The notes: a model not told the origin generated them from the letters alone. 64,000 nucleotides of DNA from SAR116 cluster alpha proteobacterium HIMB100 (GCA_000238815.2 AFXB01000010.1:248001-312000), one strand, 5' to 3'. Shown: positions 23,305-50,100, counted from the first letter of the stretch. Program-made: numbers and translations.

Positions 23305-25320
23305 ATGGCTGTTGATTATCTCAGCGCTCTCAATGTGGGAAGCGGTCTAAATGTGACACAAATCGTCGACGCAATCGTCGATGCTGAACGTGTGCCGCGT
23401 GAAACCTTCCTGAATGAAAAAATTGATGAGAAAACAGTTTCGATTTCATCACTTGGGGAAATCAAGAGCGACGTCAAAACATTTGACAATAACCTTGATC
23501 TTCTGGCCGGAAATACAGGCCTGGCCGTTGGATCAACTGACGATGATGTCATTTCTATAGAAGATAATGGCAAAATCGCTGTCCAGCCCTTTACACACAA
23601 GATGGAAGTGAGCCAGCTGGCAGCTTCACATACCGTATCTTTTCAGGGATTTACATCTGCCTCTCAGGTGTTGGCCTCAGACAGTTTTGATTTTGATTTC
23701 GGCACCTGGGCCACAAACCCCTCTCCGCCCCCTGCGCAAACATTTACAGCGCGGACCGGCAATACAACAACCAATATTACGTTAACCCCGCCAGCGAACA
23801 CACTCGCTGATCTGGCTTCGGCGATCAATAATGAAGATATGGGGGTTACCGCCAATATTGTCCGGCTGGCAGATAATAATTATGCCATGACGCTGGTAAG
23901 CAAAACTGGTGAAGACAACCAGATGCGGATTAGCGCGACAGGCGATGTGGCGCGGGTGGATTATTATGCCCCTGGCACAGGTGCAGGCACATTAGGCGAT
24001 GCGCTGAGCACAGCTGTGAGCGGAGACAAGTTCAAATTCAGTAATGGCACGTCAGATATTGAAGTTACGCTTCCTGCTGGCATTACTGCCGGAAGCTACA
24101 CAATCGATGATTTGGCAGCGGCCTTTGAGGCCGAAGCGCCCGCAAACAGCTATAAGATTGAAGTTGTGTCAGGTGAATTAAAAGTCACTGACGAAACAGC
24201 CGGAGCGAATACAGAAAGCTGGTCCCTCAGCCATGGCCCTGGCGGGACCTATGGTGCTGCGCTTACCTTTGGGGTCGCGTCTGGCACCAATGTGACCGGT
24301 GTGGACAGCCAAAGAGATGCCAGTCTGAATTTTGATCCAGAAAACTATGCTGCAGATGCCGCCTATCAGGTGATCTCAGGACAGGATGCGGAATTTACGC
24401 TTGATGGTGTCGACATCAGCCGAGACACAAACGAGATTGAGGATCTGCTGAATGGTGTGTCCTTGACGCTTAATAAAGTGACAACAAGCCCAGTAACCGT
24501 ATCGGCTGATTATAATGCCACAACTGCGCTGACAGCCCTTGAGTTATTCGTCGCTGAGCTAAATTTCCTGATCCAGAAGTTTAAGGATGTGACGTTCAGA
24601 GGAACAGCTGGCGAGGATAATGCTGGTCCTCTAGCTGGTGACCCGCTGATAAAATCCTATCTGAATACGCTGAAATCAATGACCACAAAGCCGATACCCG
24701 GCTTTCAGGCTGATGATATCTTTATGTCCAATTTTGGTGTGATGACCGAACTTGACGGGACATTGAGCATCAATGAGCTGACCTTCAATTCATTCTTTGA
24801 AGCCAATCCAGATGCATTTTCTGCTCTGATGAACACGCGTGCGGTGACCGACAGTAACCTGGTCCAGGCTGAAATTTCAGGGTCACTGTGGCAAGCCGGA
24901 AATTATACCTTCAACATTAATCCGGATACAACCGCCGATCTGGATGGTGATGCGATGTCACTTGAGGGTGGTAAATATAAAATCACTACCGGTGATGCAC
25001 GTGGCTTGGCGCTGACCCTTCTGGGTAACGGCGAAGACACCACTGTGCATATCGGCAAAAGCCTGCTTGATATATTAAAAGACTTTTCAAATGACTTGCT
25101 GGTTTCAAATAACCAGATTGACACCAAAATCAGCTCTTACAACGATGACATCACAGATTATAACGATAAGCTGGAGGAGTTGACTGAGCGGATGGAAGGT
25201 GAACGCACCCGCTATACAGAGCAATTCGCATCGATGGAATCGTCTGTTACCAGCTTTAAGAAGACAGGCGAGCTTCTGGATAATTTCATGGAATCCTGGA
25301 AAGCCGGACTGAATGGCTAA
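23305..25320 (+). CDS. fliD: Flagellar filament cap protein FliD (enlarged)
   Basis: A 671-residue cap protein; typical FliD is ~450-500. The N-terminal domain is typical (LNVGSGLNVTQIVDAIVDAE), followed by two IN-like motifs. An inserted module lies at about residues 216-333 and has a clear relative in FlgK of this window. A C-terminal FliD_C domain and long terminal coiled coil (from ~600) complete it. FliD caps the growing filament and folds flagellin subunits. It has its own sigma-54 promoter and is separated from fliS/fliT by the ClC gene. Confidence 0.93.
   Translation: MAVDYLSALNVGSGLNVTQIVDAIVDAERVPRETFLNEKIDEKTVSISSLGEIKSDVKTFDNNLDLLAGNTGLAVGSTDDDVISIEDNGKIAVQPFTHKMEVSQLAASHTVSFQGFTSASQVLASDSFDFDFGTWATNPSPPPAQTFTARTGNTTTNITLTPPANTLADLASAINNEDMGVTANIVRLADNNYAMTLVSKTGEDNQMRISATGDVARVDYYAPGTGAGTLGDALSTAVSGDKFKFSNGTSDIEVTLPAGITAGSYTIDDLAAAFEAEAPANSYKIEVVSGELKVTDETAGANTESWSLSHGPGGTYGAALTFGVASGTNVTGVDSQRDASLNFDPENYAADAAYQVISGQDAEFTLDGVDISRDTNEIEDLLNGVSLTLNKVTTSPVTVSADYNATTALTALELFVAELNFLIQKFKDVTFRGTAGEDNAGPLAGDPLIKSYLNTLKSMTTKPIPGFQADDIFMSNFGVMTELDGTLSINELTFNSFFEANPDAFSALMNTRAVTDSNLVQAEISGSLWQAGNYTFNINPDTTADLDGDAMSLEGGKYKITTGDARGLALTLLGNGEDTTVHIGKSLLDILKDFSNDLLVSNNQIDTKISSYNDDITDYNDKLEELTERMEGERTRYTEQFASMESSVTSFKKTGELLDNFMESWKAGLNG
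23950..24303 (+). repeat. FliD copy of the FliD/FlgK shared module
   Basis: About 118 codons running from ARVDYYAPGTGAGTLGDA to GTNVTGV. They match FlgK 39957-39602 (minus) in protein and clearly also in DNA (the ARVDY-APGTGAGTLGDAL stretch is nearly identical). Confidence 0.85.
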
Positions 25321-25354
25321 CAGCCTTTATAACGCAATCCAAATTCTAAGGCGC

Positions 25355-25840
25355 TTACAACAAATCCAGCACATTGACCGGTTTAGCAGCAAGCTCGCTT
25401 AACACAGGCACTTGTGAGACCTGCCCCAGCTGCCATCCGGTTTCTGCCACAACCGCCGCACCTGAACGCCATGCAAACAAATAGGCTTTGAACCGCTTTA
25501 CCGCAGACCCGCTCGAATAATTCTGTGTCTTATCACCATTTTCAACATTGCCAAATAATGGCTTTAAGTTGCGTTTTGTCAGTTGGGTGTCATGCATCAC
25601 CCTGAAATAACAAAAGCCGCGAAGCAGCTCGCTTGCCTCTGCACCAGCATCAACCTCATCCAGTGTCCTGATAAAGGCCTCAGCAGAGACAGCGAGTTCA
25701 TCTGCTGACACTTCATTATATTTTTCAGACAGACCTTTGGCGTATTTCGCTGCGATCGGGTTGATATGAATATCACCCTTCAGAAATTCATGTGCTGTTT
25801 GTGAGACAGCCGCATCAAATATCCACGCTGGACAAAACAA
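25355..25840 (-). CDS. Hypothetical protein between fliD and flagellin
   Basis: A 161-residue product, mixed alpha/beta in composition, no membrane helix or signal. The only usable start is a TTG at 25840 with GGAG seven bases upstream; the frame stays open about 28 codons further but without ATG or GTG. It may be a TTG-started gene or the remains of a longer one. No family recognised. It converges with fliD and diverges from flagellin 1. Confidence 0.5.
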   Translation of the reverse strand: MFCPAWIFDAAVSQTAHEFLKGDIHINPIAAKYAKGLSEKYNEVSADELAVSAEAFIRTLDEVDAGAEASELLRGFCYFRVMHDTQLTKRNLKPLFGNVENGDKTQNYSSGSAVKRFKAYLFAWRSGAAVVAETGWQLGQVSQVPVLSELAAKPVNVLDLL

Positions 25841-26123
25841 TTTTCCACTCCATCGCTCAGGCCAAGCGAGCCTGGTCTGCCGGGCACCCGTCTGACGACG
25901 TTGTTTAATCTGTTTGCCTCAAAAATACAAGTGCTCGAAAATAACACGGCTGATCTGATGCCTAACACAACGCAAAAATGGGCGTGTATTACGACCAGAG
26001 TTTGGAAAGTTTTAATAAATTTATTTTTAATTTTTGAGTTTAAATTTACAATGTGCTGTCGTTCATTCCTCTCGGATAGTGGCATGGTGGATGAAAAATT
26101 CTCATGTTCGGTAAGAGGATTAA
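25841..26123. other. Leader region of flagellin gene 1
   Basis: AT-rich upstream region. No sigma-54 site with the right spacing is present. A GTGGCATGG at about 26077 lacks a -12 GC. No convincing sigma-28 site was seen either. The ribosome site GTAAGAGG lies just before ATG. Confidence 0.4.
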
Positions 26124-29100
26124 ATGACTGTAATCAACACGAACGTGGGTGCAATTACCGCACGGACGTACGCAACAAATAGCAGTTCGGAGATCGAAGG
26201 CAGTTTAGAGAAATTGTCTTCAGGAAAGCGCGTGAACTCAGGATCGGACGACGCTGCTGGCTTAGCCGTCGCATACAAACTCGAGGCTCAACTTCGCTCG
26301 ACAAATATGGCGATACAGAATGCTTCCAACGGGGTTTCGCTCATCCAAACAGCCGGGTCAGGCATGAATAAAGTTAACTCGATGCTGGTGCGTATTCGTG
26401 AAGTGTCAGTGCAAATGGCAAACGGCATCTACACTGACCAGGACAGAAACAACGCTCAAGCAGAAGTCCAATTGTTGAAAGAAGAAATTGATAAAATTTC
26501 AGAAAACTTGCAGTTCAACCAAGTCTATCTTCTTGACGGGTCTTACGAACAATCCTTTCGTACTGGCGTTTCTAACGAAGAAGTTTTTGGATTATCTATC
26601 ATCTCACAAAGAGCAGAAGAGTTGGGCAAAGAGGCTGGTCTGAAAGCCTTTGGTACAAAAATAAACTCCAGTCAACATTCGCAAAGCCAGGAAACCATTT
26701 CAGTTTCTGTAATTGAAGCTCCAGCTATCGAGATTAATCTGAACCAGATGGGCCCCAGCTTTCAGAACTTTGTCGCAAATAACAACAATGTGTCTTTTCA
26801 GGTAACACAAGACGTCTCGTCTAAATTCACCATAGACCAGGCTGGAACAGTGAGTGCTAGCACCTTTATTTTTGATGCGTCAAATCCAAATAGCAATAAT
26901 TATAACTTCTCCGTAAGAGCTACGGCTGGCTCAGAGTTTTTTGAGACAAAAATAAATCTTGATGTGAAACAAAATGAAACTGCAGCTGTTTCAAAAACCT
27001 CTCAATCAACACTATCAGTTTCTGAAAGCGCAAATGTTTCGTTTAGATCAGTTGACTCCTTAAATGTTACAGACGGCGCGCTCTCAAACGCTCTTCAGTC
27101 TTTTGCGTCTGGTGATAGTTATGGAGGCACATGGTCTTTAGGGGGCGCTGACGCTTCTGACCTTAACATTGATGCGAATGGTGTTGTGACTGCAGCTCTC
27201 AGCTTTGAAGCTGATGGCAACGCAAGCACAGTTGATGCTAGTGGTTCCGGTACAACAGGAAACCAGTATACGTTCGATGTTATTTACACATCATCAACCG
27301 GCGACAAGTTCACTGAGAGTGTAACGCTTGATGTTTCTAACCAGAATGAGGAAATCGACAACCTGACAAGGGATACGACTAACATTGTTCTTGCCGACCT
27401 TGATTACGGTTCAGAATACCAGGTAACAGTCGATGGCGTTACATTAACTGCAACCAAAACATCCACCACAGCTGGTGACACAATTGCAAGCATTGCTGAT
27501 GCGTTGAATTCAAAGAACGCACTCGAAGCTACACCTGCCCGTGGACGTTTCGTGGCAGACGGTGCAAACCTTGATTTCGTTTATGACGATGCAGTTGGTA
27601 ACCATACCGGCACTGAAATCAGCGATATCAGAGTTCGTAAAGCTGAGGTGACTGCTGCAGGCGAAACAGCAATGGCCACAGGTGTTACAGGTACTGTTGC
27701 AGTAGCAGCCGAAGACCGTGTAAATCAGATTTCGGAAGTAAGTGGTATCTCAGGCATTTTGAACTCGGCCGCAAATGGTGACCAGTTCAGAATCACTGTA
27801 GATTCAAATGTGATTACAACAGCTGCAATCACTGGTGTTTCAGGTTCAAACAACTTCTCCTTCGCTGACCTGGCCGCTGCTTTGAATACAGCAAACGCAG
27901 GTGCAGCTGATGTAACCTTCGGCACAAACAACGATAAGCTGACAATCACCACTGACTCTACAAAAACAACAGCTGCTCATACAATAACAGCTAACAGCTT
28001 TCAGTGGATAGATGACAGCACGTCAACAACTACTCCTGTAGGTTCGATTGGCACTGCTACAGCAGCTAACGACTCAGTTGCTGAGACCGTTGTCATCGGC
28101 GGTGATACTGGTGAAGCTGCTGCTGCGGCTACGTTTACAAAAGACTCGTTCGTAGGCATAACCATCAATGATGTAGACTATACAGCCGACATAAACGGCG
28201 GCACTGACGGCGTTGTAGGTATGGCCGCTGCGTTGAATGCAAATACTGACTTCTTTAGTTTGTATACCGCCACCGTAGTTAATGTTCGTGATCTAGAAAT
28301 TGCAGCAAAAAATGAGGGTGAAGAATATGCATTTACTGTCACCCAATTAAGAGCGCTACAGGACACCGTAGTAGGGTCAAGCGCTGACCAAGCAAAGGGC
28401 TTCATGGGCGGCACCTCCCTCGACAACACTGCTGCAACTCAGCAAGAGGGTGAAAACACAAACGCCTTCGATGGTGCGATAAACTCTTCAGCTAGTGGAA
28501 GAGATAATTCAGCAAACGGAAATAATACAGATGGGGCGAAAACATCTGCCGTTACCCTCTCAAAAGCCACTAACAACCAAAGTGAGTTATCTGCGGTCCA
28601 TTCTTCAATCAACTTTCAAGATAATTTCACTATTTCTTTGAAAGTTGACGATTACGCTCCTGAATTCAAAACGTTCACGAGTACGAACCCATTCGGTGCT
28701 TTTGAAATTTCCGGTGAAGATAAAGGTTTCTTCAAAATTGACAGCTTTGACGGTACGTTGAGAACAACTGCCTTATTTAAGTCGACTCCAAAAGATGATT
28801 ATACAATAGATATTCATTATACCGGAAAAAACGGTAAAACATTTTCCAATCAGTTAACGCTCAATCGAGATCCACTGCAGAATACAGTGAAGGATTCAGT
28901 TGCAGACGTGGATATAAGCACAGCCGAAGGAGCTACAAACGCCATAACAATCCTAGATAGAGCGATTAATCAGATGGCAGCGCAGGAGGCCGAAATGGGC
29001 GCAGCGCAAAACAGGCTGGAGCATGCAATCGATTACTTAGGGATGGCTGGATTGAATACAGCTGCTTCCAAAAGCAGAATTGTAGATGCAGATTTCGCAG

Positions 29101-29207
29101 ATATATCGAGTAAATTGGCCAAACACCAAATTCTCAACCAAGCATCAACATCCATGCTGGCGCAAGCAAACTCCTCAAAGCAAATGCTGATGCAGCTTTT
29201 AAGATAG
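26124..29207 (+). CDS. fliC: Giant flagellin 1
   Basis: A 1027-residue flagellin; usual length is 270-500. The N-terminal D0/D1 runs to about residue 150 (MTVINTNVGAITARTYAT, SSGKRVNSGSDDAAGLAVA). The C-terminal D1/D0 is about 930-1027 (AAQNRLEHAIDYLG, STSMLAQANSSKQMLMQLL). Between them ~780 residues hold beta modules: cadherin-like ones at about 225-285, 325-410 and 830-915, and three 'VTVDG...ALN' modules at about 430-760. DNA of about 27094-28060 is nearly identical to flagellin 2. D0/D1 differ from flagellin 2 at many sites. Confidence 0.93.
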   Translation: MTVINTNVGAITARTYATNSSSEIEGSLEKLSSGKRVNSGSDDAAGLAVAYKLEAQLRSTNMAIQNASNGVSLIQTAGSGMNKVNSMLVRIREVSVQMANGIYTDQDRNNAQAEVQLLKEEIDKISENLQFNQVYLLDGSYEQSFRTGVSNEEVFGLSIISQRAEELGKEAGLKAFGTKINSSQHSQSQETISVSVIEAPAIEINLNQMGPSFQNFVANNNNVSFQVTQDVSSKFTIDQAGTVSASTFIFDASNPNSNNYNFSVRATAGSEFFETKINLDVKQNETAAVSKTSQSTLSVSESANVSFRSVDSLNVTDGALSNALQSFASGDSYGGTWSLGGADASDLNIDANGVVTAALSFEADGNASTVDASGSGTTGNQYTFDVIYTSSTGDKFTESVTLDVSNQNEEIDNLTRDTTNIVLADLDYGSEYQVTVDGVTLTATKTSTTAGDTIASIADALNSKNALEATPARGRFVADGANLDFVYDDAVGNHTGTEISDIRVRKAEVTAAGETAMATGVTGTVAVAAEDRVNQISEVSGISGILNSAANGDQFRITVDSNVITTAAITGVSGSNNFSFADLAAALNTANAGAADVTFGTNNDKLTITTDSTKTTAAHTITANSFQWIDDSTSTTTPVGSIGTATAANDSVAETVVIGGDTGEAAAAATFTKDSFVGITINDVDYTADINGGTDGVVGMAAALNANTDFFSLYTATVVNVRDLEIAAKNEGEEYAFTVTQLRALQDTVVGSSADQAKGFMGGTSLDNTAATQQEGENTNAFDGAINSSASGRDNSANGNNTDGAKTSAVTLSKATNNQSELSAVHSSINFQDNFTISLKVDDYAPEFKTFTSTNPFGAFEISGEDKGFFKIDSFDGTLRTTALFKSTPKDDYTIDIHYTGKNGKTFSNQLTLNRDPLQNTVKDSVADVDISTAEGATNAITILDRAINQMAAQEAEMGAAQNRLEHAIDYLGMAGLNTAASKSRIVDADFADISSKLAKHQILNQASTSMLAQANSSKQMLMQLLR
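27094..28060 (+). repeat. Flagellin variable-region tract shared with flagellin 2
   Basis: Nearly identical to 30386-31350. By direct reading 27504-27652 has no mismatch (149 bases) and 27730-28021 has one. Flanking regions coding for D0/D1 differ heavily, including at silent sites. A less similar continuation runs to about 28490. Confidence 0.92.
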
Positions 29208-29397
29208 AGTTTCAATTGAGAGACGAAACTTTACAGCAATCTCCAGATTTTTGATTGCATTATATCGAAATCAGTTAACTGACCAGATTTTGATCAAAAA
29301 ATTTTAAAAAAAATTAACAATATTTTTTTCATGACGTTGTTCTTAGTGGGTTCAGGCGAAAGTCTGGCGTGTCAGAACAGCATTATGGAGTTTTAAG
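29208..29397. other. Gap between flagellins 1 and 2
   Basis: Strongly AT-rich (29280-29340). A weak inverted repeat (AGTTTC/GAAACT, 29210-29232) lies just after the first stop. No sigma-54 site with correct spacing. A GGAG ribosome site precedes flagellin 2. Confidence 0.4.
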
Positions 29398-32300
29398 ATG
29401 ACTGTTATTAATACTAACGTAGGTGCTTTGACAGCGCGGACTTACGCAGTTAAAGCTACAGCAAGCACAGAAACAGCGATGGAAAGACTTTCGTCTGGTC
29501 TGCGGATTAACTCTGCAGCGGACGACGCAGCTGGTCTAGCTGTTGCAAACAAAATGGAAAGCCAGCTTCGCGGTATGAACATGGCTATTCGGAACTCGCA
29601 AGACGGCATTTCACTTGTACAGACTGCTGAAGCAGCCATGGGTGAAGTCAACAACATGGCCATCCGCATGCGCGAACTGGCAGTTCAAATGAATAACGGC
29701 GTTTACACTGACTCAGACCGTGCAAACGCTCAATTGGAAGTTACTGCTTTGTTGGCCGAAATTGACAAGATTGCCAACAATGCGGCATTCAACGAAGTAA
29801 AAATCCTGGATGGCACATATTCTCAAGACATTCGTGCAGGTAACACAAATCCAGAGATTATCAATGTTGCTATCGATCGGATGAATACTGATTCTCTTGG
29901 TGGAGCAAACCTTGCGGGAACTTCATCAGTTGCCACAAACAACCAGTCAGCCGATGTTAATTCGAAGTCGCGCACAACAATCAACCTGAAGGACGCAGAT
30001 ACTGTTACTATCAAATCTAGTGCGCTTAGCACCGGGTTAACTGCTTTTGCAGCCGCTAACTCTGGGGGAACTTACACACTTGACAGCACATCAACTGCAG
30101 ATGGCTTTCAAATCGATTCTTCTGGTCAAATTACAAACAACTCAGGTGTTTCATACTCTACAACAAACAGTGACCTTAACACTAAGAGCATGACTGTGAC
30201 GTACACCCAAGGGTCAAACGTTTATGTTGAAGATGTGACGCTTAATATCCAGGCAGAGGGTACAAACCAACAGATTAAATCGGCTGCCTCTACATTGACC
30301 GTCAACGAATCTGCTAATGTCTCATTCAGAGCTGTAAACACTCATCAAGCGGTAGTCGCTACCGATGGAGCGCTTTCAACAAACCTTCAGTCTTTTGTGT
30401 CTGGTGATAGTTATGGAGGCACATGGTCTTTAGGGGGCGCTGACGCTTCTGACCTTAACATTGATGCGAATGGTGTTGTGACTGCAGCTCTCAGCTTTGA
30501 AGCTGATGGCAACGCAAGCACAGTTGATGCTGGTGGTTCTGGTACAACAGGAAACCAGTATACATTCGATGTTATTTACACATCATCAACTGGCGACAAG
30601 TTCACTGAGAGTGTAACGCTTGATGTTTCTAACCAGAATGAAGAAATTGATAATCTCGCGAGAGACACAACACACATTGTTCTTGCTGACCTTGATTACG
30701 GTTCAGAATACCAGGTAACAGTTGACGGCGTTACATTAACTGCGACCAAAACATCCACCACAGCCGGTGATACAATCGCGGGCATTGCTGATGCTTTGAA
30801 TTCAAAGAACGCACTCGAAGCTACACCTGCCCGTGGACGTTTCGTGGCAGACGGTGCAAACCTTGATTTCGTTTATGACGATGCAGTTGGTAACCATACC
30901 GGCACTGAAATCAGCGATATCAGAGTTCGTAAAGCTGAGGTGACAGGTGCAGACGAAACAGCAATGGCTGTCGGTACTGCGACAGCTGCTGTGGCTGCGG
31001 AAGACCGTGTAAATCAGGTTTCGGAAGTAAGTGGTATCTCAGGCATTTTGAACTCGGCCGCAAATGGTGACCAGTTCAGAATCACTGTAGATTCAAATGT
31101 GATTACAACAGCTGCAATCACTGGTGTTTCAGGTTCAAACAACTTCTCCGTCGCTGACCTGGCCGCTGCTTTGAATACAGCAAACGCAGGTGCAGCTGAT
31201 GTAACCTTCGGCACAAACAACGATAAGCTGACAATCACCACTGACTCTACAAAAACAACAGCTGCTCATACAATAACAGCTAACAGCTTTCAGTGGATAG
31301 ATGACAGCACATCAACAACTACTTCTGTAGGTTCAATTGGAACAACTACCGCTGCTAACGATGCGGTTGCCGAGACAATTGTAATCGGTGGTGCTGCTGG
31401 TGAAACAGCTGCTGCGGCTACGTTTACTACCAATTCACATGTCGGTATCACCATTAATGACGTCGATTATGTCGCTGATATAAACGGTGGTACAGCTGGT
31501 GCGGCAGGCATCGTGGCAGCTTTGAACAACAATACCGCGTTTTCCAACCTGTTCACAGCGACAGTGATTAACACTACCGACATCCAAATTGAAGCGGACA
31601 ATGCCGGCACGGACTACGCCTTTACAGCTACCAATTTCCGTCATCTCCGCGATACTGTGGTAGGTACTGGTGCTGACCAAGCTAGAGGCTTCATGGGTGG
31701 TACCTCCCTCGATAATGCTGCTGCAACTCAGCAAGAGGGTGAAAATACAAACGCCTTTGATGGTGCGGTAAACTCCTCGTCAACACGCACAGCTACATCA
31801 ACCGGCACTGCTACAACACAGCTAAATGGGAACTTTGGCGTACAGGCATCATCTGAAGTGTCAGAAGCCAAAAACACCATTACTGTGGCAGAGGCGGCTG
31901 TAGTAAAGTTCGGAACAGATGCTATGTCATCGTCAATGAACAACTACATGACAACTACCGGTCAAACTGGCGGCACTTTCTCGCTAGCTGGGGCTGATAA
32001 AGAGAGCTTCGAAATCAACGCAAACTCTGGCCTTGTTGAAAACAAAGTCAACATGGATGCTGATGGAACTAAGACCTCTTACACCTTCGACGTAGTTTAC
32101 ACAGACAAGAACGGTGAAACATTTACTGATAAGGTAACTCTAAACCTTACCAATAACACTACCGATGATGTCCAGCATATTGCTGATGTGAACTTGTCAA
32201 CTCAAGGCGGCGCGTCATCTGCCATCGGCATTCTGGATAGCGCGATTAACCAGATTTCAGCTTCACAAGCGAAACTGGGCGCGATTCAGAACCGACTGGA

Positions 32301-32487
32301 GCACAACATTGACAACCTGTCCATGGCTTCGATGCTGACCGAAACATCAAAAGGTCGTATCATTGACGCAGACTTTGCAGCAGAAACAAGCGAATTGTCC
32401 AAGCAGCAAATTCTGGCTCAGGCAGCAACATCAATGCTGGCGCAAGCCAACCAGTCAAAGCAGGGCGTTCTGGCGCTGCTGCAGTAA
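29398..32487 (+). CDS. fliC: Giant flagellin 2
   Basis: A 1029-residue flagellin. D0/D1 start MTVINTNVGALTARTYAV, with LSSGLRINSAADDAAGLAVA; the C-terminal part (GAIQNRLEHNIDNLS, SMLAQANQSKQGVLALLQ) is closer to the family consensus than in flagellin 1. The ~770-residue centre has cadherin-like modules at about 215-280, 330-415 and 855-920 and three 'VDG...ALN' modules. It probably is a major filament subunit, by its more canonical ends. Its mRNA ends at the shared terminator at 32507. Confidence 0.94.
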   Translation: MTVINTNVGALTARTYAVKATASTETAMERLSSGLRINSAADDAAGLAVANKMESQLRGMNMAIRNSQDGISLVQTAEAAMGEVNNMAIRMRELAVQMNNGVYTDSDRANAQLEVTALLAEIDKIANNAAFNEVKILDGTYSQDIRAGNTNPEIINVAIDRMNTDSLGGANLAGTSSVATNNQSADVNSKSRTTINLKDADTVTIKSSALSTGLTAFAAANSGGTYTLDSTSTADGFQIDSSGQITNNSGVSYSTTNSDLNTKSMTVTYTQGSNVYVEDVTLNIQAEGTNQQIKSAASTLTVNESANVSFRAVNTHQAVVATDGALSTNLQSFVSGDSYGGTWSLGGADASDLNIDANGVVTAALSFEADGNASTVDAGGSGTTGNQYTFDVIYTSSTGDKFTESVTLDVSNQNEEIDNLARDTTHIVLADLDYGSEYQVTVDGVTLTATKTSTTAGDTIAGIADALNSKNALEATPARGRFVADGANLDFVYDDAVGNHTGTEISDIRVRKAEVTGADETAMAVGTATAAVAAEDRVNQVSEVSGISGILNSAANGDQFRITVDSNVITTAAITGVSGSNNFSVADLAAALNTANAGAADVTFGTNNDKLTITTDSTKTTAAHTITANSFQWIDDSTSTTTSVGSIGTTTAANDAVAETIVIGGAAGETAAAATFTTNSHVGITINDVDYVADINGGTAGAAGIVAALNNNTAFSNLFTATVINTTDIQIEADNAGTDYAFTATNFRHLRDTVVGTGADQARGFMGGTSLDNAAATQQEGENTNAFDGAVNSSSTRTATSTGTATTQLNGNFGVQASSEVSEAKNTITVAEAAVVKFGTDAMSSSMNNYMTTTGQTGGTFSLAGADKESFEINANSGLVENKVNMDADGTKTSYTFDVVYTDKNGETFTDKVTLNLTNNTTDDVQHIADVNLSTQGGASSAIGILDSAINQISASQAKLGAIQNRLEHNIDNLSMASMLTETSKGRIIDADFAAETSELSKQQILAQAATSMLAQANQSKQGVLALLQ
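30386..31350 (+). repeat. Flagellin variable-region tract shared with flagellin 1
   Basis: Partner of 27094-28060 at an offset of about 3.29 kb. Blocks of near-identity are broken by short divergent patches (for example 30946-31005), a mosaic typical of gene conversion. Confidence 0.92.
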
Positions 32488-32506
32488 GACTGAACAGAAA
32501 CAAAAG

Positions 32507-32537
32507 AAAAGGGCGCTCAACCGAGCGCCCTTTTTTA
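32507..32537. terminator. Bidirectional terminator between convergent flagellins
   Basis: A perfect 8-bp GC-rich stem (gggcgctc / gagcgccc, loop aacc) with A-run on the left and six Ts on the right. It works as a rho-independent terminator on both strands, for flagellin 2 (plus) and flagellin 3 (minus). Confidence 0.93.
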
Positions 32538-32554
32538 TTTGTCTAATCCAGTTT

Positions 32555-35500
32555 TTAGCCCTGTAGCAGAGACAGGATGGACTGAGAGGTTCTATTTGCC
32601 TGAGCAAGCATCGCCTGAGCTGCCTGAGAGAGAACCTGAGCTTTTGTCATCTCAGTTGTTTCTTCAGCAATATCTGCATCCTGAATACGTGAACGTGCTG
32701 CTTTGGTGTTCACAACGATGTTCGACAGGTTATTGATGGTATGTTCCATCCGGGACATTGTCGCACCAAGATCTGAACGTTCAAGGTCAATTCTGACCAG
32801 TGCCGCATCAACAGCTGTCAGCATCTTCTTGGAATTCTCAACGGTGAGAACGTCAAGCTCTGACACAGAGACCAGGTCTGCCGCACCAGGCGTCAGCTGG
32901 AACAAGCCGCCGCCGTCAATACCGGTTCTGCCTGCCTCTACTGAGAACACATAAGGTGAATGGAATGTAATCTCACCTGTTGATCTGAAGGTGTCTGTCT
33001 CATTCGTACCTTTTCTGAGTAGCTGCATATCACCCACGGATTCCAGCTTATCATTGGTTGCCGAAACCTGCATCGGGATATTCACCACCGACATGGTGAA
33101 ATTCTCGACAACAATGTCATAACCGTCATTTGAGAACATATGGATCATGGCCCCGTTCGACGATACCTTGGCCGTGATGCCTGTTTTACCAGACACACCG
33201 TTGATGGCATCAGCAAGAGCGCGAACATTTGCATCCCGTCCGCCGTCAACACCGAAGCTAACTGAACCTGAGACCAGGATAGGGTCTTCATTGACGCCTT
33301 TCAGCTTGAACGAGACCGCATCTGAAACAGCCTCAAACTGATCCGGGAAGCTGAGGTTTACACGTGTTTGTGCGTTCGCATACACCCCTGTTTCACCCTG
33401 TGCCGCATTGATGGACTGAACAATGTCATAAGCTGACTCGCCGCCATTCACATCAATCACAGCCGTGCCGACGTTACCATAGATGGTGAGGTCTTCTTCT
33501 TCACTCACCAGGCTGGCAGCATCAATCGCGCTTTGCCCGACAAGAGGACGGCCCGCGGCCTGGGTGACGACGTCATCACGATCGTCATTTGTGATTGTCA
33601 GGCTGACTTTGTCGGTAAAGGAATTGTTCCCTTGGGTATATATGATGTTGAAATCATATACATTTCCTGCACCGTCATCAGTCGGATTTTCGTTATCCAG
33701 ATATGAGCGTGAAGTCACTTCACCTGTCTCATCATCAATCCGGAACAACTCAGCGTCTGTTCCTGACAGAGAGAATGTTCCGCCTGTGAAATTCTCTTTA
33801 AATGAGGCCAAAGCTTCAGAATGTCTATTTACCGGGATTTTTGTCTTTCCGCCTTCAACAGCAGTCATAGCGATATCAATTTCACCATTTGTCTGCTCAT
33901 TTCCTGAAGTCTTTGTGACGTGACCTTTCATATCGACCATGGTCATCGTGTAAGTTTCGGTGAACACCACGGTTGTTGGAGCCGTGCTGTTAAACACTTC
34001 GATAGTGAAAGACGTTAAATCTATCGGGACAAACTCGCCATTGTTATCAACAGCCATTGACACATCAAACGTACCATCGAGATTATCCGTCAATGTAATT
34101 CCCTCTGGCGGCGTTCCACCAATAGCAAATCTACGGTTAGCAGCTGGAATAGTACTTACAGCACTGGCCGAAGTCATATTTGTCCGCGTTTCATCAAAGG
34201 TAAACGCAGCAGTCCCGGTGGGCTGGTTGGTCCGCAGAGTAATATTTGACGCCGCGGCAATGTCGCCAGATGCAACAGAGGAATCCTCGTTCAGAACGTT
34301 TGCAGGCGTCACATTATCATTATCAGTCTTAGAGACAACGTCGACTTCACCATCTACCGCACCTTCACCAGTACCGTCTGTAGCAATGATATTTGCTGTA
34401 AACGTGTGCTGAACAAATGGGTTGACCGTCAGTGTGACTGTTTCGGTATATAAAACTGTTGAAGTTGAGTTATCAAGGTACTCGATTTCAATAACTTGTG
34501 TTCCAAGGTTAATACCTGCCGGAGTTCTTGTTATTGTTGTTGTAAAATCAAACGAGTTTGCAACCGGAGCAAGGGATGCACCTGTTATACCGGGCGCCTT
34601 TATCCTCGTTAATCTATCACCTGCAGCCACAGCAGAGAGTGCTGAGATGGCACTGGTATTTGAGGTATCTGCTTGTGTGAACGTAAAGTTCGCGCCGCCA
34701 CTCTCTTGGGCAGTGATAACACCTGTTGAAGTACCAGTCGTCGCGGTTGAACCTGCGATTGGCCCAGCTGTTACGCTGTTTGTTGTCGTGTCTCTAGCCT
34801 CAATCGTAACAGATGTTGTACCTACAACAACATTCGTCCCGGTATTGTCGGTTGTAATCTCCAGGTCGAATGTGCCATCCAAGTTATCCTGAAGAGCGAC
34901 ACCGGTTGTAGACGCCATGAAGAATGTAGTGTCTCCATCGAAACCAAGTGATGACCCCGCTGTACCAGCTGGCAATAAATCCGATTCTTCGACAAGAGCG
35001 ACAGCTGTAGAGGCTGCTGTATTTGTTCTCAAAGACACATTTGTTGTATTCGCCCGTGCTGTAACTGCTGTAGGGTCGCCTACTGAAAGCTGGTCAGTTG
35101 TTGCAAATTCAGTACTGGCGTCAGTTACAGTCAGGTTCACTGTTTCTTCATATACCTGGTCGCCATCAGCATCACGTAGCTCAAACTCAACCTGCTGTGT
35201 TGGTGTACCTTCAGCAATACGTGGTGTTCTGTTGCCTGCTGTCCGCAGGATCAAATCACCAGTTTCTGTATTTACACTTGCACCGGTCAGTGCTGTTGTC
35301 ACAGAAAATGAACCTGTGAAATTATCAGCATTCATCGTGCCGTCAGCATTGACAGTCATGCCCAAAGCTTTCGCCTGGTTCAGCAGATCTGGTGACAAAT
35401 CTGAAATCTTCAGGACCGTGTTTGGAGAGTTGTCTGCTGTAGCAGATTTAATTGTGATATTGGAGATGCCGGTTTCATTCATCTGGTTCTTGACCGAAAT

Positions 35501-36466
35501 AGTCATGTTTTCAGAGAATTTCACACCATCAGAGTTTGTGTAGACCACCTTGAATTGGAAATTATTATTTCCTGCCGCACTGGCGTTATCTTCAAAATCC
35601 AGTTCAGTCACGGTTGACGGAAGACGGATCTCGCCTGTTGCGCTGTTGATGTCAAATTTATCTACATCAACCGTCGAGCCAGTCTGACCATCAGCAGCTT
35701 CGAGGCTGAATGCGCCCGTTGTGCCTGTATCAGCTGTTACAAACGCTTTCAGAAGGTCAGTCGCAATACCAGTAACTGGGTTGTCAGACACAGTCTGGTT
35801 GATTGTATGGATTGAGATGACTTCATTTTCAAAGATGTCCACACTGACATGCGAGCCATTATTTTCAATATGGCTGGTCGCTGTACCAACAGCTTCCGGG
35901 GACGTTTCGTCAATAAGATAGTTCTCAGCATTCTGAACAGATGTCTTCAAGATGTATTCGCCAAGGCCGGTGGGCTTAACATCTTCAATAGACAAGGTTG
36001 CCGTATCATTTGGCTGGAACCCAACCTGGAATGTGGTGTCCAGGAAGCTACCATTGAGCATCTTCACGCCATTAAAGGTCGAACTTTCCGCGATTCTGTG
36101 GAGTTCTTCCTGAAGCGCACCTACCTCATTTTGGATAGCTTGTCGGTCTTGCCCCGTATAGACGCCGTTTGCAGATTGAACAGACAACTCACGCATCCTG
36201 TGCAGGATTTGTGTCACCTCTTCAATTGCACCTTCTGCCGTCTGTGTCAGCGAGATGGCATCCGCAGCATTTCGTATCGCTGCTTCCAGACCTTTAATCT
36301 GGGATGTCATCCGGTTGACAATAGACGCACCAGCTGCATCGTCTACCGCATGATTCAAACGTAATCCTGACGAAATACGTTCGAGTGCTTTGTTCATACC
36401 TTCTTCTTTATTCTTAAGATGGTATAGGGTCGTAACCCCGGCCATATTTGTATTAATCTTGCTCAT
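32555..36466 (-). CDS. Giant flagellin 3
   Basis: A 1303-residue flagellin of a different lineage from flagellins 1 and 2. It starts MSKINTNMAGVTTLYHLKN with ERISSGLRLNHAVDDAAGAS, and ends SQAAQAMLAQANRTSQSIL. The ~1000-residue centre has repeated ~100-residue beta modules containing 'DNLDGTFDL/V..' and 'TETVTLTV' and one cadherin-like module (GGTFSLSGTDAELFRIDDE). A flagellin-IN segment (GKTGITAKVSSNG) lies near the C-terminal side. ATG at 36466 overlaps the stop of a 62-codon upstream ORF. Two sigma-54 sites precede it, unlike the other flagellins. Confidence 0.93.
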   Translation of the reverse strand: MSKINTNMAGVTTLYHLKNKEEGMNKALERISSGLRLNHAVDDAAGASIVNRMTSQIKGLEAAIRNAADAISLTQTAEGAIEEVTQILHRMRELSVQSANGVYTGQDRQAIQNEVGALQEELHRIAESSTFNGVKMLNGSFLDTTFQVGFQPNDTATLSIEDVKPTGLGEYILKTSVQNAENYLIDETSPEAVGTATSHIENNGSHVSVDIFENEVISIHTINQTVSDNPVTGIATDLLKAFVTADTGTTGAFSLEAADGQTGSTVDVDKFDINSATGEIRLPSTVTELDFEDNASAAGNNNFQFKVVYTNSDGVKFSENMTISVKNQMNETGISNITIKSATADNSPNTVLKISDLSPDLLNQAKALGMTVNADGTMNADNFTGSFSVTTALTGASVNTETGDLILRTAGNRTPRIAEGTPTQQVEFELRDADGDQVYEETVNLTVTDASTEFATTDQLSVGDPTAVTARANTTNVSLRTNTAASTAVALVEESDLLPAGTAGSSLGFDGDTTFFMASTTGVALQDNLDGTFDLEITTDNTGTNVVVGTTSVTIEARDTTTNSVTAGPIAGSTATTGTSTGVITAQESGGANFTFTQADTSNTSAISALSAVAAGDRLTRIKAPGITGASLAPVANSFDFTTTITRTPAGINLGTQVIEIEYLDNSTSTVLYTETVTLTVNPFVQHTFTANIIATDGTGEGAVDGEVDVVSKTDNDNVTPANVLNEDSSVASGDIAAASNITLRTNQPTGTAAFTFDETRTNMTSASAVSTIPAANRRFAIGGTPPEGITLTDNLDGTFDVSMAVDNNGEFVPIDLTSFTIEVFNSTAPTTVVFTETYTMTMVDMKGHVTKTSGNEQTNGEIDIAMTAVEGGKTKIPVNRHSEALASFKENFTGGTFSLSGTDAELFRIDDETGEVTSRSYLDNENPTDDGAGNVYDFNIIYTQGNNSFTDKVSLTITNDDRDDVVTQAAGRPLVGQSAIDAASLVSEEEDLTIYGNVGTAVIDVNGGESAYDIVQSINAAQGETGVYANAQTRVNLSFPDQFEAVSDAVSFKLKGVNEDPILVSGSVSFGVDGGRDANVRALADAINGVSGKTGITAKVSSNGAMIHMFSNDGYDIVVENFTMSVVNIPMQVSATNDKLESVGDMQLLRKGTNETDTFRSTGEITFHSPYVFSVEAGRTGIDGGGLFQLTPGAADLVSVSELDVLTVENSKKMLTAVDAALVRIDLERSDLGATMSRMEHTINNLSNIVVNTKAARSRIQDADIAEETTEMTKAQVLSQAAQAMLAQANRTSQSILSLLQG

Positions 36467-36654
36467 ATCGCTCGCCAATCCACAAAAGTTGGACACCCTG
36501 CGTTGTTGCAAATGCCGTGCCAACCGCACGCCGCTTCGCCAATTAATCTAGTCATATCGTCAAAACCTAAGCTAGCTGGTGGGCCGGCCTTAGCCTTTCT
36601 GACTGACACTCCCGGGTCTTTACCCCAGGCCGTTTCGAAGAACAGGTTTTGCAT
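36463..36654 (-). CDS. Possible 63-aa leader ORF coupled to flagellin 3
   Basis: It starts at ATG 36654 with GGAAG upstream and ends in TGA overlapping the flagellin 3 ATG (ATGA). It lies downstream of the distal sigma-54 promoter and contains the proximal one. The product has no recognisable motif. It may be a translated leader or an accidental frame. Confidence 0.35.
   Translation of the reverse strand: MQNLFFETAWGKDPGVSVRKAKAGPPASLGFDDMTRLIGEAACGWHGICNNAGCPTFVDWRAI
36507..36522 (-). promoter_or_regulatory. Proximal sigma-54 promoter of flagellin 3
   Basis: Minus-strand TGGCAC and TTGCA, ten bases between GG and GC: the best consensus match in the window, 41 bases before the flagellin 3 start. 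Confidence 0.9.
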
Positions 36655-38218: not shown

Positions 38219-41200
38219 TTAGACGACATCAATCAAGGTCTGGAACAGCTCTCTTGCTGTTGACAGCACCCGTGCTGACGCCTGATAGGCTTGTTGGAAT
38301 TCAATCAGGGCAGCAGCTTCACTATCCAGATTCACCCCGGAAAATTCAGCTTCAGATTCGATCGCTGCTTCTTTTGTGGCCTCCGCCCCGTCCAAAGCCT
38401 GTTCATTTGACCTGACTGAAGCGCCAACTGTTGCCACTATGGTTGAAAAAATCGACGAAAACCCGCCTGACGCTGTCCCGTTCATATCTTTTGATTGCTG
38501 GGCAATCATGGCATTCAGATTACGGGCATCCCCTGCCCCATTTTCAGTCCGCTGCAAGGTGAACTGATCATTCAAGGCTGTTTTGCCTTTAAGGTTCATC
38601 TGATACCCATCAAAGATGAAGCCATTTTCGTCATCCACAACACGTGTGGCAATCGAATGACCTGTCTGGCTGTCCAGGATTTCATACCGCATGGCATCAT
38701 CCGACACCGCTTTGACCGTCAGCCCGCCCCGGTCAAGAACAGAGGCGATAAAGCTATCTGATTCTGTTGCAATCTGGTCATAGACAGCATTTACCGCCCT
38801 TGCCCCACTGCCTGTTGTGAAGACAAGCAAATCTTCTGCGGCAACATCCATTATACTGATGGTCTGGCTGGCCAGGCTGCTGGCTGTTGCGTTCACATCA
38901 ACAACATCGCCTGTCAAACTTTCAACAGAGATACCTTGCCCATCCAATGTCAAGCGCAGGTCCGCTGTCTTCATCCCCAACGCGTTCTGAGGTTTATCAA
39001 AGGTCAGGGTGTGAACGGCCGGATCATATTCGATCACCACACGGCCTTCGGTTGTTGACGTAACAGTTGATGTCACAGACACGCCGGTTGGCAGAGACGG
39101 TGACGGGGTCACCCCGCCGGACGGGCCCATAGATATGGTATAATTCACATCATTGATGGTCAGGTTCAGATCATCCATTGATGATCCAGACATCAGCGCT
39201 GTGCTGGCGAACCGCATTTTTGTTGTGGCCAGGCCAAATAAAGCAGCGTTATCACTATTGCCTGAGATTTGACTGTCGCTTGTGACTTTGATCTTATCAC
39301 CAGATAAGGTACCGCCGCCAATAATCTGCAGCTTTTTCTGGTCGTCAAAATAAGCAGTCAAACGCCCCTGTTCACCCCCGCTTATCTGCAGCTCGCCATC
39401 CTGCATTGTGATGTGATACGTCTCACCGGCAAAATCGACATACACCCCCTGCCCATCTGCGGGCATGGATTTCGCGGTTACAGAGTCAGACAATGCCAAG
39501 GTCGATTGCGCGCTGGCATCAACGAAATTAACCGCCCCCATTGCAAAGCTCTGACCATCCGTATTGGCTTCAATCTTCAGCTTATAAACCGGTGCGGCTG
39601 TTACACCTGTCACATTTGTTCCTGTTGCAACGCCAAAAGTTAAGGCTGGACCATAGCTGCCCCCTACACGATGGGCCAATGTATAGGTTTCGGTATTCGC
39701 GCCGGGGGTTTCATCCGTTATCTTTAACTCGCCGCCTTCGACTTCAAATTTATAACTATCTGCGGGCGCTCTTGATTCAAATTCCTGAACCAGATCAGCA
39801 AGCGAGAAATCACCAGCATTCACCCCAGCTGGGATCGTCATTTCAATATCAATGGTTCCATTATCGAATTTAAATTTGTCCCCAGACACAGCCGCAGCAA
39901 GAGCATCGCCCAATGTGCCCGCACCGGTACCTGGCGCAAAATAATCAACCCGCGCAATATCCACCGGATCAGAATAGGCTGTTGCAGTAACGCCTAAATC
40001 AGCGTTATTCACCAGACGGGCGGCTGCCTCAGTCAAGAGCTGGGCGGTTGTGACAGCAGTACCCAGACCATCACCGTCTGACATATCCACGGTAAGGTTC
40101 GTGCCTGCAACTGTCAGGCTGAGCGAATCCCCTGTTCCAGGTGTAGGATCAATAACTGTTGGCCCGGAAAAGCTGTAGATAACACTTTGTGGCTTAGCAG
40201 CGGCATCACCGCCAGACAAGCTGGCCAGAGGGGCTTGTTGGCGCAGCGCATCGACAAGGTTTTTCTGAATGGACGCTTGGGTAAGCTGATTTGCGCTGCC
40301 AGATGTCACCTCAGCTGAAAAAGAAACTGAGCTGTCACTGGTTGGCAAGGTGAGACCATAACGGCCTGCGGCTGCAACTGCGCGTTGACCATCATAGGAT
40401 GAGTCATTCATATCAGCCGCGCTATTCACACTATATTGAATGGTCTTTTTGTCTGCCGCCTGATTTGAAGAAATGCTGATCAAGCCATTACGGGTTGTAT
40501 CAGACATACTGTTTGATACAACACCAGCACCAGTAGTCAGCGAAAAGCTGTTTGCTGAATCAATTTCAACCAGACCAGAAAAACGTGCATGATCTTTGGT
40601 ATTTCCTTCTCCGCCAAGCCTCAGGGCTGGTGCAGCCTCTCTGCCTTTCGCATCGACAATCTTGCTGGTTATCTGTGGAGCGGTTGAGGCATAGTCAGAC
40701 AGGAAAATATCTTTACCATCAGCCTTTTCCAAAATAACGCGTTTCTTATTGCTGGATAAATGCGCTGTAATGCCGGTCCGGCTTGACTGGTCATTCAGAG
40801 CCGTCACCAAATTGGTCAGATCAGACGGCACAACACTTGCCGAAATGGCAATAGGGGTATCGTTATCCCCTTCAATTTTGAAGGCGACCGTTCCTGTGGC
40901 TGTCAGATCTGATAATTCCACACGCATATTGGCCCGGGCTGTGATACCCAGATGCTGGAGCTTGTCATTTAACAGCTCGGCCACGTCACTTGCTGCATCA
41001 CCTGATTTCAGATCGACCGACGCGCTGACCCCGTTACTTAATGATATATTCACCGTCTGATCAGCTGCAGGGCTGAGGGGCATACCACCAAATTTGCCAA
41101 CTGCAGATGCGCCTGTACCATCTGCCCCGATGGTCAGGCTGTGCATCCCGGATGCCCGATCAATGTCTATCTTCATCCCCCGGTAGGCAGGTTCAGTCTG

Positions 41201-47191: not shown

Positions 47192-50100
47192 TTAGCCTCT
47201 GATCTGAATAATTGTCTGAGTCAGCGTTGTTGTGGTCTCAATCGCTTTTGCTGAGGCCTGGAAGTTCCGCTGAGCGGTAATCAGATTCACAAGCTCTTCA
47301 GTAATATCGACGTTGGACCGTTCAAGAGACCCTGACAGGACAGTACCAAAGCCCTCAGCCCCAGCTTCACCAACCTGGGCGTTACCAGAAACCGCGGTCG
47401 CTACATATGTCGCGTTACCAATTTGCTTCAGGCCGTTCTGGTTATTAAAGTTGGCCAGAACAATTTTACCCAAAGGATTATTTTGACCATTTGTATAGTT
47501 CGCCCGCACCGTACCAGACGCATCAATTTCAAGCCCGTCAAGGCGACCGGATGTGAATCCATCTTGGTCAATAGACAGCACTGAGAAGGGCTGAGCAAAT
47601 TGCGTTGAGGCACTGAAATTAATATCGATGTCTACGGACACCCCTTCGGTTGACTCATAGCTGACCACATTTTTCGGGCTGAGCAGCTTACCTGTTTTAT
47701 CAAAGGTCAGCTCGCCTTCATCAATATATAATGGATAATAATCATCAACCATCGGGTCTGGAGCTGTGGTGACAACTTCACCTTGTGCATTCACAAAAAG
47801 CTTTGCGCCATCTTCATTTTCAGCCTGAACAATATTGTAAATTTCAGGCACAGAACCCACACCCAAAGGCACTTCATCCAAGCCAAGACGCGCCGCGCCT
47901 TTCACCTTGATGGTTGAATCACTTCCTGTTGTTCCTGTTGTGAAAACAAAATTATTATTTTCACTTGAATAACGGACAGTTACCCCGCCAACAGTCGCGC
48001 CTGTATTTGGATCCATAATCTGATTGATACGCTTTTCAAGAGCTTCAGCAAGGGTCGAGCCGACATAAAAGCCTGAAGGCACCTCAACAACACCATTGAT
48101 GCCGTTCACAGATACGTTGAACCGGTTGTCACCATCAACACTGGACAGACGGAAGACTTCGGTCAAATCGTCATTAGCAATGCCGCCAACAGCTTGCGCT
48201 GCTGATGACGCCAGGCCTTTGGCAGCGGTAAAGTTTGTATCTGCCTTTGTCCCGCCAACACCCATCAGATGGTTATCGCCTGTATCCAGTGCGGTTGTGT
48301 CTGTGACTGAACCATCTGTTGTGCTCAGTGTGTAGCGGCCAACCTGAATATTTGAAGCCGACTGATCAGTGGTGACGCCCAACGCTTTGTTGGCGTCAAT
48401 CCGCTCACCAGTTGTGCCGCTGGCAAAGGTGAAGGAACGGGTATCAGAATTATAATTCACCTTGACCCCATAACGTTTGTCATTCAGCTGAATTTCTTCA
48501 CCATCTGCAACAAACGCTTCTGCAGAAAGGACCTCACCCCCGCGGATCAGGACTTCTTCGGCATCCCCTTTTGCAGGAATGCCAAGGTTATTCGTATCTT
48601 CAGCTGAATCAGCACCATAGATGTTGAAAGAATTGAAGTTTGAATTTGTACCTGTGCCGAGAATGTTTCGCTCAACAGTGAATTGCAGACGCTGATTCAC
48701 CGCATCATATTTTACCTGGATAGGCGGATCTTTTTCATCCACCCAGTCTGTAGTTGTATTAACCACAGCGTTGGTGCCGTCTGTGATCCCTAAAACTTCT
48801 AATGAATCCATTGTTGGATCAGTACCAACAGCCTGTGTAAGCGTAAATTCAGCAGAATAGTCTGAGAAAATGCCTTTATTGGATGCTGAGACCGTATCAA
48901 TTGTCAGCGTTAGATCGTTCGCTGGTGACGCGCCGCCAAAGGCAGAGAATATGTTACCGGACAGTGTCAGTGTATCGGTAGCCGCATAGCCTCTTCCCGC
49001 ATTTGTGATCGTGACACCGGTGATTACGCCAGCAGCTACGGTTAACTCAACAGTGGCGTCTACTCCGGTACCTGAAGTTGAAATGCTGCTCGCCGGAACT
49101 GTGATTGTTCCGTTGGCTGTTGCCGGAACCACGCCAGCTGGCAGCGGCGGATTGAAGGTCGTGATTTCGTTCAGGTCATTGATGTTTTTGTTGGTGTAAA
49201 AATGCTTTCCGTCAGCACTTTTTTCACGCAGGACAATATGCTGGCTGTTAAAATTATCTTTGGCGCCGTCATAGACATTCTCAGAACCTTCAAAGAATGC
49301 TTCAACTGTCTCAGATTCATCACTCATAACATAGAGGTCTGTTTCTGCCAGCGTGAAGTCATCATCAGGGAAATCAAGGCCTGTTGTGTTGATTTCAATA
49401 TAGTTTGCCCCGGCTGTTTCGCCTGAAGCGACATTATTGATGGTAAATTCACGGCCATTGATGATGTCTGAATCTGCCAATTCACCAGCAATCGTGAAAT
49501 CACCGGCAAGGCGAATCTTATTATTTGCCGCAAAGCCGCCCATCAATGCTGATGTATCAGCTGGTGTTGCTGTGTCCGCAAAATACACCCGCAAGGTATT
49601 CTGGTTAGAGTTGTAAACCACAGAATTTGTGCCCGCCCCTGTGGTTGCTACCTGCTGCTGGTTGTCATACACGCTCAGAGACGGCCGGTTTGCATACATG
49701 GAATAGACCATGTATTTCTCGCTGTTTGTCAGTGAGGTACCGGTAATTCCTGCCGTATTTGTTGCATTTGACGTTGTATGGTCAAATTTCACAATCTGGG
49801 TCTTTTCAAAAACCGCTTCCATCTCATCGCCTCTTGCGCGGGCGAACAAATCTGTGGACACGCCAAGTGCACTGGCATTGTCGACCGTGTCAGTGGCATC
49901 AACAGCGTATCGGTTCAAGGATTCGTTAATTCTGGCTTGCGTGTGAGCCAGGAACTGTTCTCTGGTGAAGTCAGGTGAGGCGCCAGATAGCGTAATATTC
50001 TCTACATCAGACACAAAGCTGTCTGCCAGAAGGTCAACTTCAATTGGTGTTGTCAGACCTGTTGATGAGCCATCCTGATTCAGTTTGAACAGATTGATGT

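What the first reader, a model, noticed from the sequence alone, without database searches (positions are those of the whole stretch)
26124..32487. Flagellins 1 and 2: variable centre conserved, conserved ends diverged
Seen: DNA of about 27094-28060 and 30386-31350 is nearly identical (149 bases with no mismatch, then 292 with one), while the D0/D1 ends differ heavily, including at silent sites. Normally flagellin ends are conserved and the centre varies. Inference: recent gene conversion or recombination confined to the surface-exposed region keeps the two surfaces alike, or exchanges surface cassettes between subunits.
Basis: seen in the sequence. Interest (0 to 1): 0.72.

Follow-up and report, generated by a model that had tools for sequence, protein, structure and literature searches.

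The report
Paired giant flagellins sharing their surface
Two neighbouring genes for giant flagellar filament proteins in a marine SAR116 bacterium have anciently diverged ends but keep overwriting each other's outer-surface part by DNA recombination, a process known from Campylobacter flagellins; a close relative swaps whole surface parts between its flagellin genes.

Summary
The genome matches SAR116 strain HIMB100. Flagellins f1 (26124-29207) and f2 (29398-32487) are saturated at silent sites in their D0/D1 ends (61% aa identity, pS about 0.76), yet nearly identical over 27107-28021 / 30399-31310 (149-nt exact run; 292 nt with one mismatch). f2 is the genus orthologue and f1 an older paralogue, but the centre is shared only by f1 and f2 of this genome. 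A tree of the shared domain groups f1+f2, whereas a tree of the ends groups f2 with other species. This is concerted evolution by gene conversion, in patches of different age, inside a larger surface cassette shared earlier (f2 aa about 297-800). Assembly collapse is unlikely: the longest exact match (160 nt) is far below the 415-nt reads. Four of 27 adjacent same-strand pairs in the order, including this one, show the reversed pattern. The closed relative LSUCC0396 shows a perfect two-by-two chessboard of flagellin ends and centres. HIMB100 FliD and FlgK also share a genome-specific inserted domain. The kind is known (Campylobacter flaA/flaB); extreme end divergence, chessboard and cap/junction sharing make it a variant. 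Whether matched surfaces are selected for is open.

The parts
26124..29207 (+). flagellin f1, 1027 aa; paralogue outside the clade of f2 orthologues
   Evidence: PF00669 at 4-140 and PF00700 at 941-1026; groups with the contig-C3 flagellin of the same genome, not with f2 orthologues
29398..32487 (+). flagellin f2, 1029 aa; orthologue of the single flagellin at this place in congeners
   Evidence: N-terminal 144 aa 73-88% identical to f2 of G001, G004, G005, G006, against 61% to f1
27107..28021 (+). recent conversion tract in f1, patchy (exact runs 27107-27239, 27504-27652, 27730-27860, 27862-28021)
30399..31310 (+). recent conversion tract in f2
27000..28510 (+). whole shared surface cassette in f1 (Ig-like domain 2 and modules m1-m3); edges approximate, outer parts saturated at silent sites
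30286..31800 (+). whole shared surface cassette in f2 (aa about 297-800); edges approximate
26124..26555 (+). f1 N-terminal D0/D1 end (diverged)
29398..29829 (+). f2 N-terminal D0/D1 end (diverged)
28944..29204 (+). f1 C-terminal D1/D0 end (diverged)
32227..32484 (+). f2 C-terminal D1/D0 end (diverged)
32555..36529 (-). third flagellin f3 (1324 aa), orthologous across the genus; not part of the exchange
23944..24303 (+). 120-aa domain inserted in FliD (cap), 71% identical to a FlgK insert
39602..39961 (-). 120-aa domain inserted in FlgK (hook-filament junction), clean in-frame insertion relative to congeners

Best explanation
f1 and f2 are old flagellin paralogues whose D0/D1 ends have long evolved separately. 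At some point one exposed cassette (second Ig-like domain plus modules m1-m3, f2 aa about 297-800) came to be in both genes, by homologous recombination between them or descent from one inserted copy. Since then ordinary homologous recombination between the adjacent genes (presumably RecA-dependent, non-reciprocal gene conversion) has repeatedly overwritten the core of the cassette (27107-28021 / 30399-31310) in several tracts of different age, while regions already too diverged (ends, flanking Ig-like domains, most of the 3' part of the cassette) no longer recombine. Both copies stay open and under purifying selection. Shown: tract, saturation outside it, patchiness, conflicting gene trees, and the same process elsewhere in the order. 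Inferred: RecA dependence, direction (f2 to f1 more likely), and any benefit. A possible benefit is that subunits mixed in one filament present matching outer domains.
For: Silent-site contrast 40/318 inside against 81/129 and 59/95 in the flanks; 52-codon identical run against at most 16 in shuffles; clustered islands of difference, so more than one event. Ends tree: f2 with congeners' f2, f1 with the C3 flagellin (support 98; similar). Ig2 tree: f1+f2 together (99), 99% identity against 30-38% to orthologues. Centre DNA occurs nowhere else in the genome, and in 40 relatives only as 26-38% aa matches. Congeners G004-G006 have only f2 at this place. Same pattern in the G106 and G116 tandem pairs (all differing codons in the end regions) and in G001 C29 from codon 810 on. 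LSUCC0396: 92 sites AB|DE all in the ends, 190 sites AD|BE all in the centre, none AE|BD. No inverted repeats of 40 nt or more around the pair.
Against: Only one strain of this species is available, so neither ongoing conversion nor its direction was seen. Islands of difference inside the tract could also come from import of alleles from other strains rather than from several rounds between f1 and f2. 23 of 27 adjacent flagellin pairs in the order do not show the pattern, so it is not a general property. G106 and G116 are drafts whose assembly could not be checked.
Confidence: 0.88

Rival explanations
1. Selection for matching surfaces: f1 and f2 build one mixed filament whose outer domains must pair, or be glycosylated or recognised alike, so converted variants are favoured while ends are kept distinct for separate assembly roles. 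(Compatible with the conversion mechanism; adds a cause.)
For: Tract lies in the outermost modules by chain position; outer-domain dimerisation in filaments is reported (PMC8931119, title and abstract). FliD and FlgK of this genome share another genome-specific domain. A FlmG-like TPR protein is present.
Against: Other exposed domains (Ig1 20%, Ig3 29% identity) and m3 (67%) are not kept alike. Expression and assembly were not testable.
Confidence: 0.35
2. Surface-cassette exchange for variation (as proposed for Campylobacter flaA/flaB): paralogues act as a reservoir that reshuffles exposed cassettes, for example against flagellotropic phages or grazers.
For: LSUCC0396 chessboard of two centres on two end types in a closed genome. 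Centres turn over between species: f2 m1-m2 region about 20% identical to congeners, against 74-78% in the N end.
Against: In the window both genes carry the same cassette, which lowers rather than raises diversity; no invertible repeats and no further copies of the cassette in the genome.
Confidence: 0.3
3. Assembly artefact: repeat collapse made two diverged centres look alike.
For: Draft 454 assembly with 10 contigs.
Against: Longest exact match 160 nt and longest stretch with one mismatch 292 nt, both below the 415-nt mean read length at 132x; both copies keep private differences; the same phenomenon occurs in a closed genome from a study that used hybrid assembly.
Confidence: 0.03
4. Recent whole-gene duplication with accelerated evolution of the ends.
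For: f1 and f2 are adjacent, on one strand and of equal length.
Against: Ends are saturated at silent sites, which selection on the protein would not cause, and trees place f1 outside the f2 clade shared with other species.
Confidence: 0.02

Closest known systems
Campylobacter jejuni flaA/flaB tandem flagellins (concerted evolution, Meinersmann and Hiett 2000; Harrington 1997; cited in PMC5126078)
   Same: Adjacent flagellin paralogues; in strain PT14 FlaA/FlaB differences lie mostly in the terminal regions (26 residues) with 4 in the central exposed region (PMC5126078); intragenomic recombination reported.
   Different: FlaA/FlaB are 95% identical overall; here ends are only 61% identical with saturated silent sites, the proteins are over 1000 aa, and only part of the exposed region is converted.
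Flagellin hypervariable-region replacement by recombination in conserved ends (E. coli / Salmonella H antigens, PMC7018530)
   Same: Recombination with ends in conserved regions swaps whole central regions, as in the LSUCC0396 chessboard.
   Different: There it is between strains at one locus; here between paralogues in one genome.
Giant flagellins (PMC6248924)
   Same: Flagellins over 1000 aa with large exposed domains in marine bacteria.
   Different: No recombination between paralogues is described in that paper (term not found).
Caulobacter FlmG TPR-glycosyltransferase with several flagellins (PMC7591256)
   Same: TPR proteins of this type lie beside flagellin arrays in LSUCC0396; one distant homologue in HIMB100.
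   Different: Five paralogues with near-identical C-terminal parts and different TPR parts in LSUCC0396; function not tested.

Membership tests
Bacterial flagellin | Flagellin_N and Flagellin_C helical ends | tested here: met
   PF00669 and PF00700 well above cut-off in both proteins
Concerted evolution by gene conversion | Paralogues in one genome more alike than either is to its orthologue in the converted part, orthologous grouping elsewhere | tested here: met
   Ig2 and ends trees conflict with support 99 and 98
Concerted evolution by gene conversion | Silent divergence drops sharply inside the tract | tested here: met
   40/318 against 81/129 and 59/95
Concerted evolution by gene conversion | Conversion seen between strains or in culture | not testable with these tools
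   one strain of the species held
Campylobacter flaA/flaB type flagellin locus | Adjacent paralogues with centre more alike than termini | tested here: met
Campylobacter flaA/flaB type flagellin locus | Different promoters (sigma-28 and sigma-54) and major/minor subunit roles | not tested
   upstream sequence read but promoters not tested; sigma-54 activators lie nearby
Site-specific invertible surface cassette | Inverted repeats flanking the switching segment | tested here: not met
   no inverted repeat of 40 nt or more in 24000-36000; shorter ones were not searched
Giant flagellin | More than 1000 aa with solvent-exposed insertion | tested here: met
   1027 and 1029 aa; beta-rich domains between the D1 halves in a model of mean pLDDT 61

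The most novel reading that the evidence does not exclude
In SAR116 bacteria the exposed domains of the filament are a genome-wide shared coat: cassettes move by recombination among flagellin paralogues (f1/f2; LSUCC0396 chessboard) and also among the other filament-surface proteins FliD and FlgK (a 120-aa insert found only in this genome's FliD and FlgK among 136 genomes; a 97-aa shared stretch in G013). Cap, junction and shaft thus tend to carry related outer domains while their assembly ends evolve independently, because the outer layer is under joint selection.
Probability: 0.2. Interest if true: 0.75.

Novelty: new variant of a known kind. Interest (0 to 1): 0.5.

Why it matters
Flagellin surfaces are targets of phages, grazers and immune systems, yet how surface domains move between genes is mostly known from pathogens. 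Here an abundant free-living marine group shows the process at several stages: fresh identical pairs (G106, G116), a patchy half-decayed pair (HIMB100), an older pair (G001), and full end/centre reassortment in a closed genome (LSUCC0396). That makes it possible to date conversion, test whether it is limited by homology or by selection, and ask whether the whole filament shares one coat.

Tried and rejected
Centre DNA against plasmids: no match. Protein scan of named genomes with f1: none confirmed, so the strain name rests on the exact size and contig match with PMC3368413. Centre against PDB sequences: no match. AlphaFold model: ends and three Ig-like domains mostly confident, aa 413-814 mostly below 50, so the fold of most of the recent tract is unknown; Foldseek hits are flagellins, driven mainly by the ends. 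Considered and rejected: invertible cassette (no inverted repeats of 40 nt or more); recent whole-gene duplication (silent saturation of ends). Homology of the FliD/FlgK domain to flagellin module m2: hhalign probability 21%, not claimed. FliD against f3 similarity in G004-G006 is not higher within than between genomes, so it is ancestral rather than concerted.

Full report
OBSERVATION. The two genes are ORFs 26124-29207 (f1, 1027 aa) and 29398-32487 (f2, 1029 aa), both with complete Flagellin_N and Flagellin_C ends. In a codon alignment, pS per 25-codon bin is mostly 0.55-1.0 in the ends and in most of codons 675-1040. It falls to 0-0.17 in most bins of codons 325-650, with islands of 0.26-0.59. 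The longest run of identical codons is 52, against at most 16 in 10,000 shuffles. Among codons for the same residue, silent differences are 81/129, 40/318, 49/93 and 59/95 in codons 0-325, 325-665, 665-800 and 800-1040. Differences inside the tract are clustered (0 of 5,000 shuffles as uneven), so it is a mosaic of tracts of different age or source.

WHERE IT COMES FROM. The genome has 10 contigs and 2,458,945 bases, with window contig 1,167,490. That is exactly SAR116 strain HIMB100: one 454 Titanium library, mean read 415 bp, 132x, Newbler (PMC3368413). Exact matches of at most 160 nt, and 292 nt with one mismatch, are within one read, and each copy keeps private differences, so collapse is unlikely. 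It is not excluded without the reads.

WHICH COPY IS WHICH. In congeners G004, G005 and G006 the cluster is FliD, a 161-aa conserved unknown, one flagellin (f2), an opposed flagellin (f3), FlgL, FlgK; f1 is missing. The f2 N end is 73-88% identical to its orthologues but 61% to f1. f1 groups with another flagellin of this genome on contig C3. The duplication of the ends is therefore older than the species.

THE CENTRE TELLS A DIFFERENT STORY. The centre DNA exists only in f1 and f2 of this genome; 40 relatives have only 26-38% aa matches. Domain by domain, f1-f2 identity is: N end 61%, Ig1 20%, Ig2 edge 67%, Ig2 core 99%, m1-m2 95%, m3 67%, Ig3 29%, C end 61% (domains from the model and the module search; Ig1-Ig3 and m1-m3 are names given here). 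The once-shared cassette therefore runs from about aa 297 to 800, and only its core has been converted recently. Ig2 also exists in the orthologues, so trees can be compared: Ig2 groups f1+f2 (99), while the ends separate f1+C3 flagellin from f2+orthologues (98). That is the standard signature of concerted evolution.

HOW GENERAL. Flagellins were taken from genomes of the same order. Of 27 adjacent same-strand pairs, four show centre identity above the ends: this one; G001 C29 (codons 810-1320, pS mostly 0.2-0.5 against about 0.8 before, running on into the C end); G106 C45 (17 differing codons, in codons 3-46 and 661); and G116 C5 (7, all in the end regions). The others do not show it. The strongest case is G020, whose single contig of 2,592,803 bp equals closed strain LSUCC0396 (PMC12262181). 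Four of its flagellins form a two-by-two table of two end types and two centres: 92 informative sites support the end grouping, all in codons 2-166 and 326-400; 190 support the centre grouping, all in codons 168-311; none supports the third grouping. The matching centres are base-identical over 540-944 of the alignment although the genes lie on opposite strands, about 5 and 37 kb apart. Exchange of the exposed part between paralogues (or, equivalently, of the ends) is thus shown directly there.

OTHER FILAMENT PROTEINS. HIMB100 FliD and FlgK share a 120-aa domain (71% aa) that is a clean in-frame insertion relative to congeners in both genes and is absent from all other 135 genomes searched in the order. 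Silent sites are diverged (45/85), so the event is old. G013 FlgK and FliD share a 97-aa stretch at 55%. This suggests, but does not prove, that surface domains spread among all filament-surface proteins of a genome.

MECHANISM AND LIMITS. Homologous gene conversion explains everything seen. Breakpoints in the window lie inside coding domains, not at repeats, and no inverted repeats of 40 nt or more occur. A neutral version suffices: once ends have diverged, only still-similar parts can recombine, and the similar zone shrinks inward. A selective version (matching outer domains in a mixed filament) is possible; outer-domain dimerisation is reported in other bacteria (PMC8931119 abstract). Against strict matching, Ig1, Ig3 and m3 have diverged. 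Expression, co-assembly and direction were not testable.

COMPARISON. Campylobacter flaA/flaB is the closest known case: adjacent paralogues, differences mainly in the termini, recombination proposed (PMC5126078). The window fits that kind. New here are saturated ends, partial conversion of a multi-domain giant flagellin, the chessboard in a relative, and the FliD/FlgK sharing. No description in SAR116 was found in the library searched.

Noticed in passing
23944-24303 (+) and 39602-39961 (-): FliD and FlgK carry the same 120-aa domain (71% aa), a clean insertion in both relative to congeners and found nowhere else in 136 genomes of the order.
   Followed up: yes
G020 C1 2231642-2286039 (loci L083-L085, L102): LSUCC0396 has at least ten flagellins; four form a perfect end/centre chessboard.
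   Followed up: yes
L083, L084, L102, L085 (G020 C1 2247821-2276919): Five FlmG-like TPR proteins beside the flagellins with near-identical C-terminal (presumed glycosyltransferase) parts and different TPR parts, around what looks like a sugar-biosynthesis cluster; possibly one enzyme per flagellin.
   Followed up: partly
L126:1452-4403 (-) (G000 C10 about 347451-350402): 983-aa protein with an M10 serralysin-type protease domain, RTX repeats and a C-terminal flagellin helical region but no Flagellin_N match; possibly a protease delivered by or attached to the flagellum, convergent with a giant flagellin.
   Followed up: partly
38219-43219 (-) and 47192-51301 (-): FlgK (1666 aa) and FlgE (1369 aa) are giant too, so hook, junction and filament proteins are all enlarged.
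   Followed up: partly
25355-25840 (-): 161-aa protein conserved between FliD and the first flagellin in all relatives examined, without a Pfam or NCBIfam match; a candidate flagellin chaperone or regulator.
   Followed up: partly
G000 C3 22430-27475 (L067): A 1684-aa flagellin elsewhere in the genome, nearest to f1 in its ends.
   Followed up: partly
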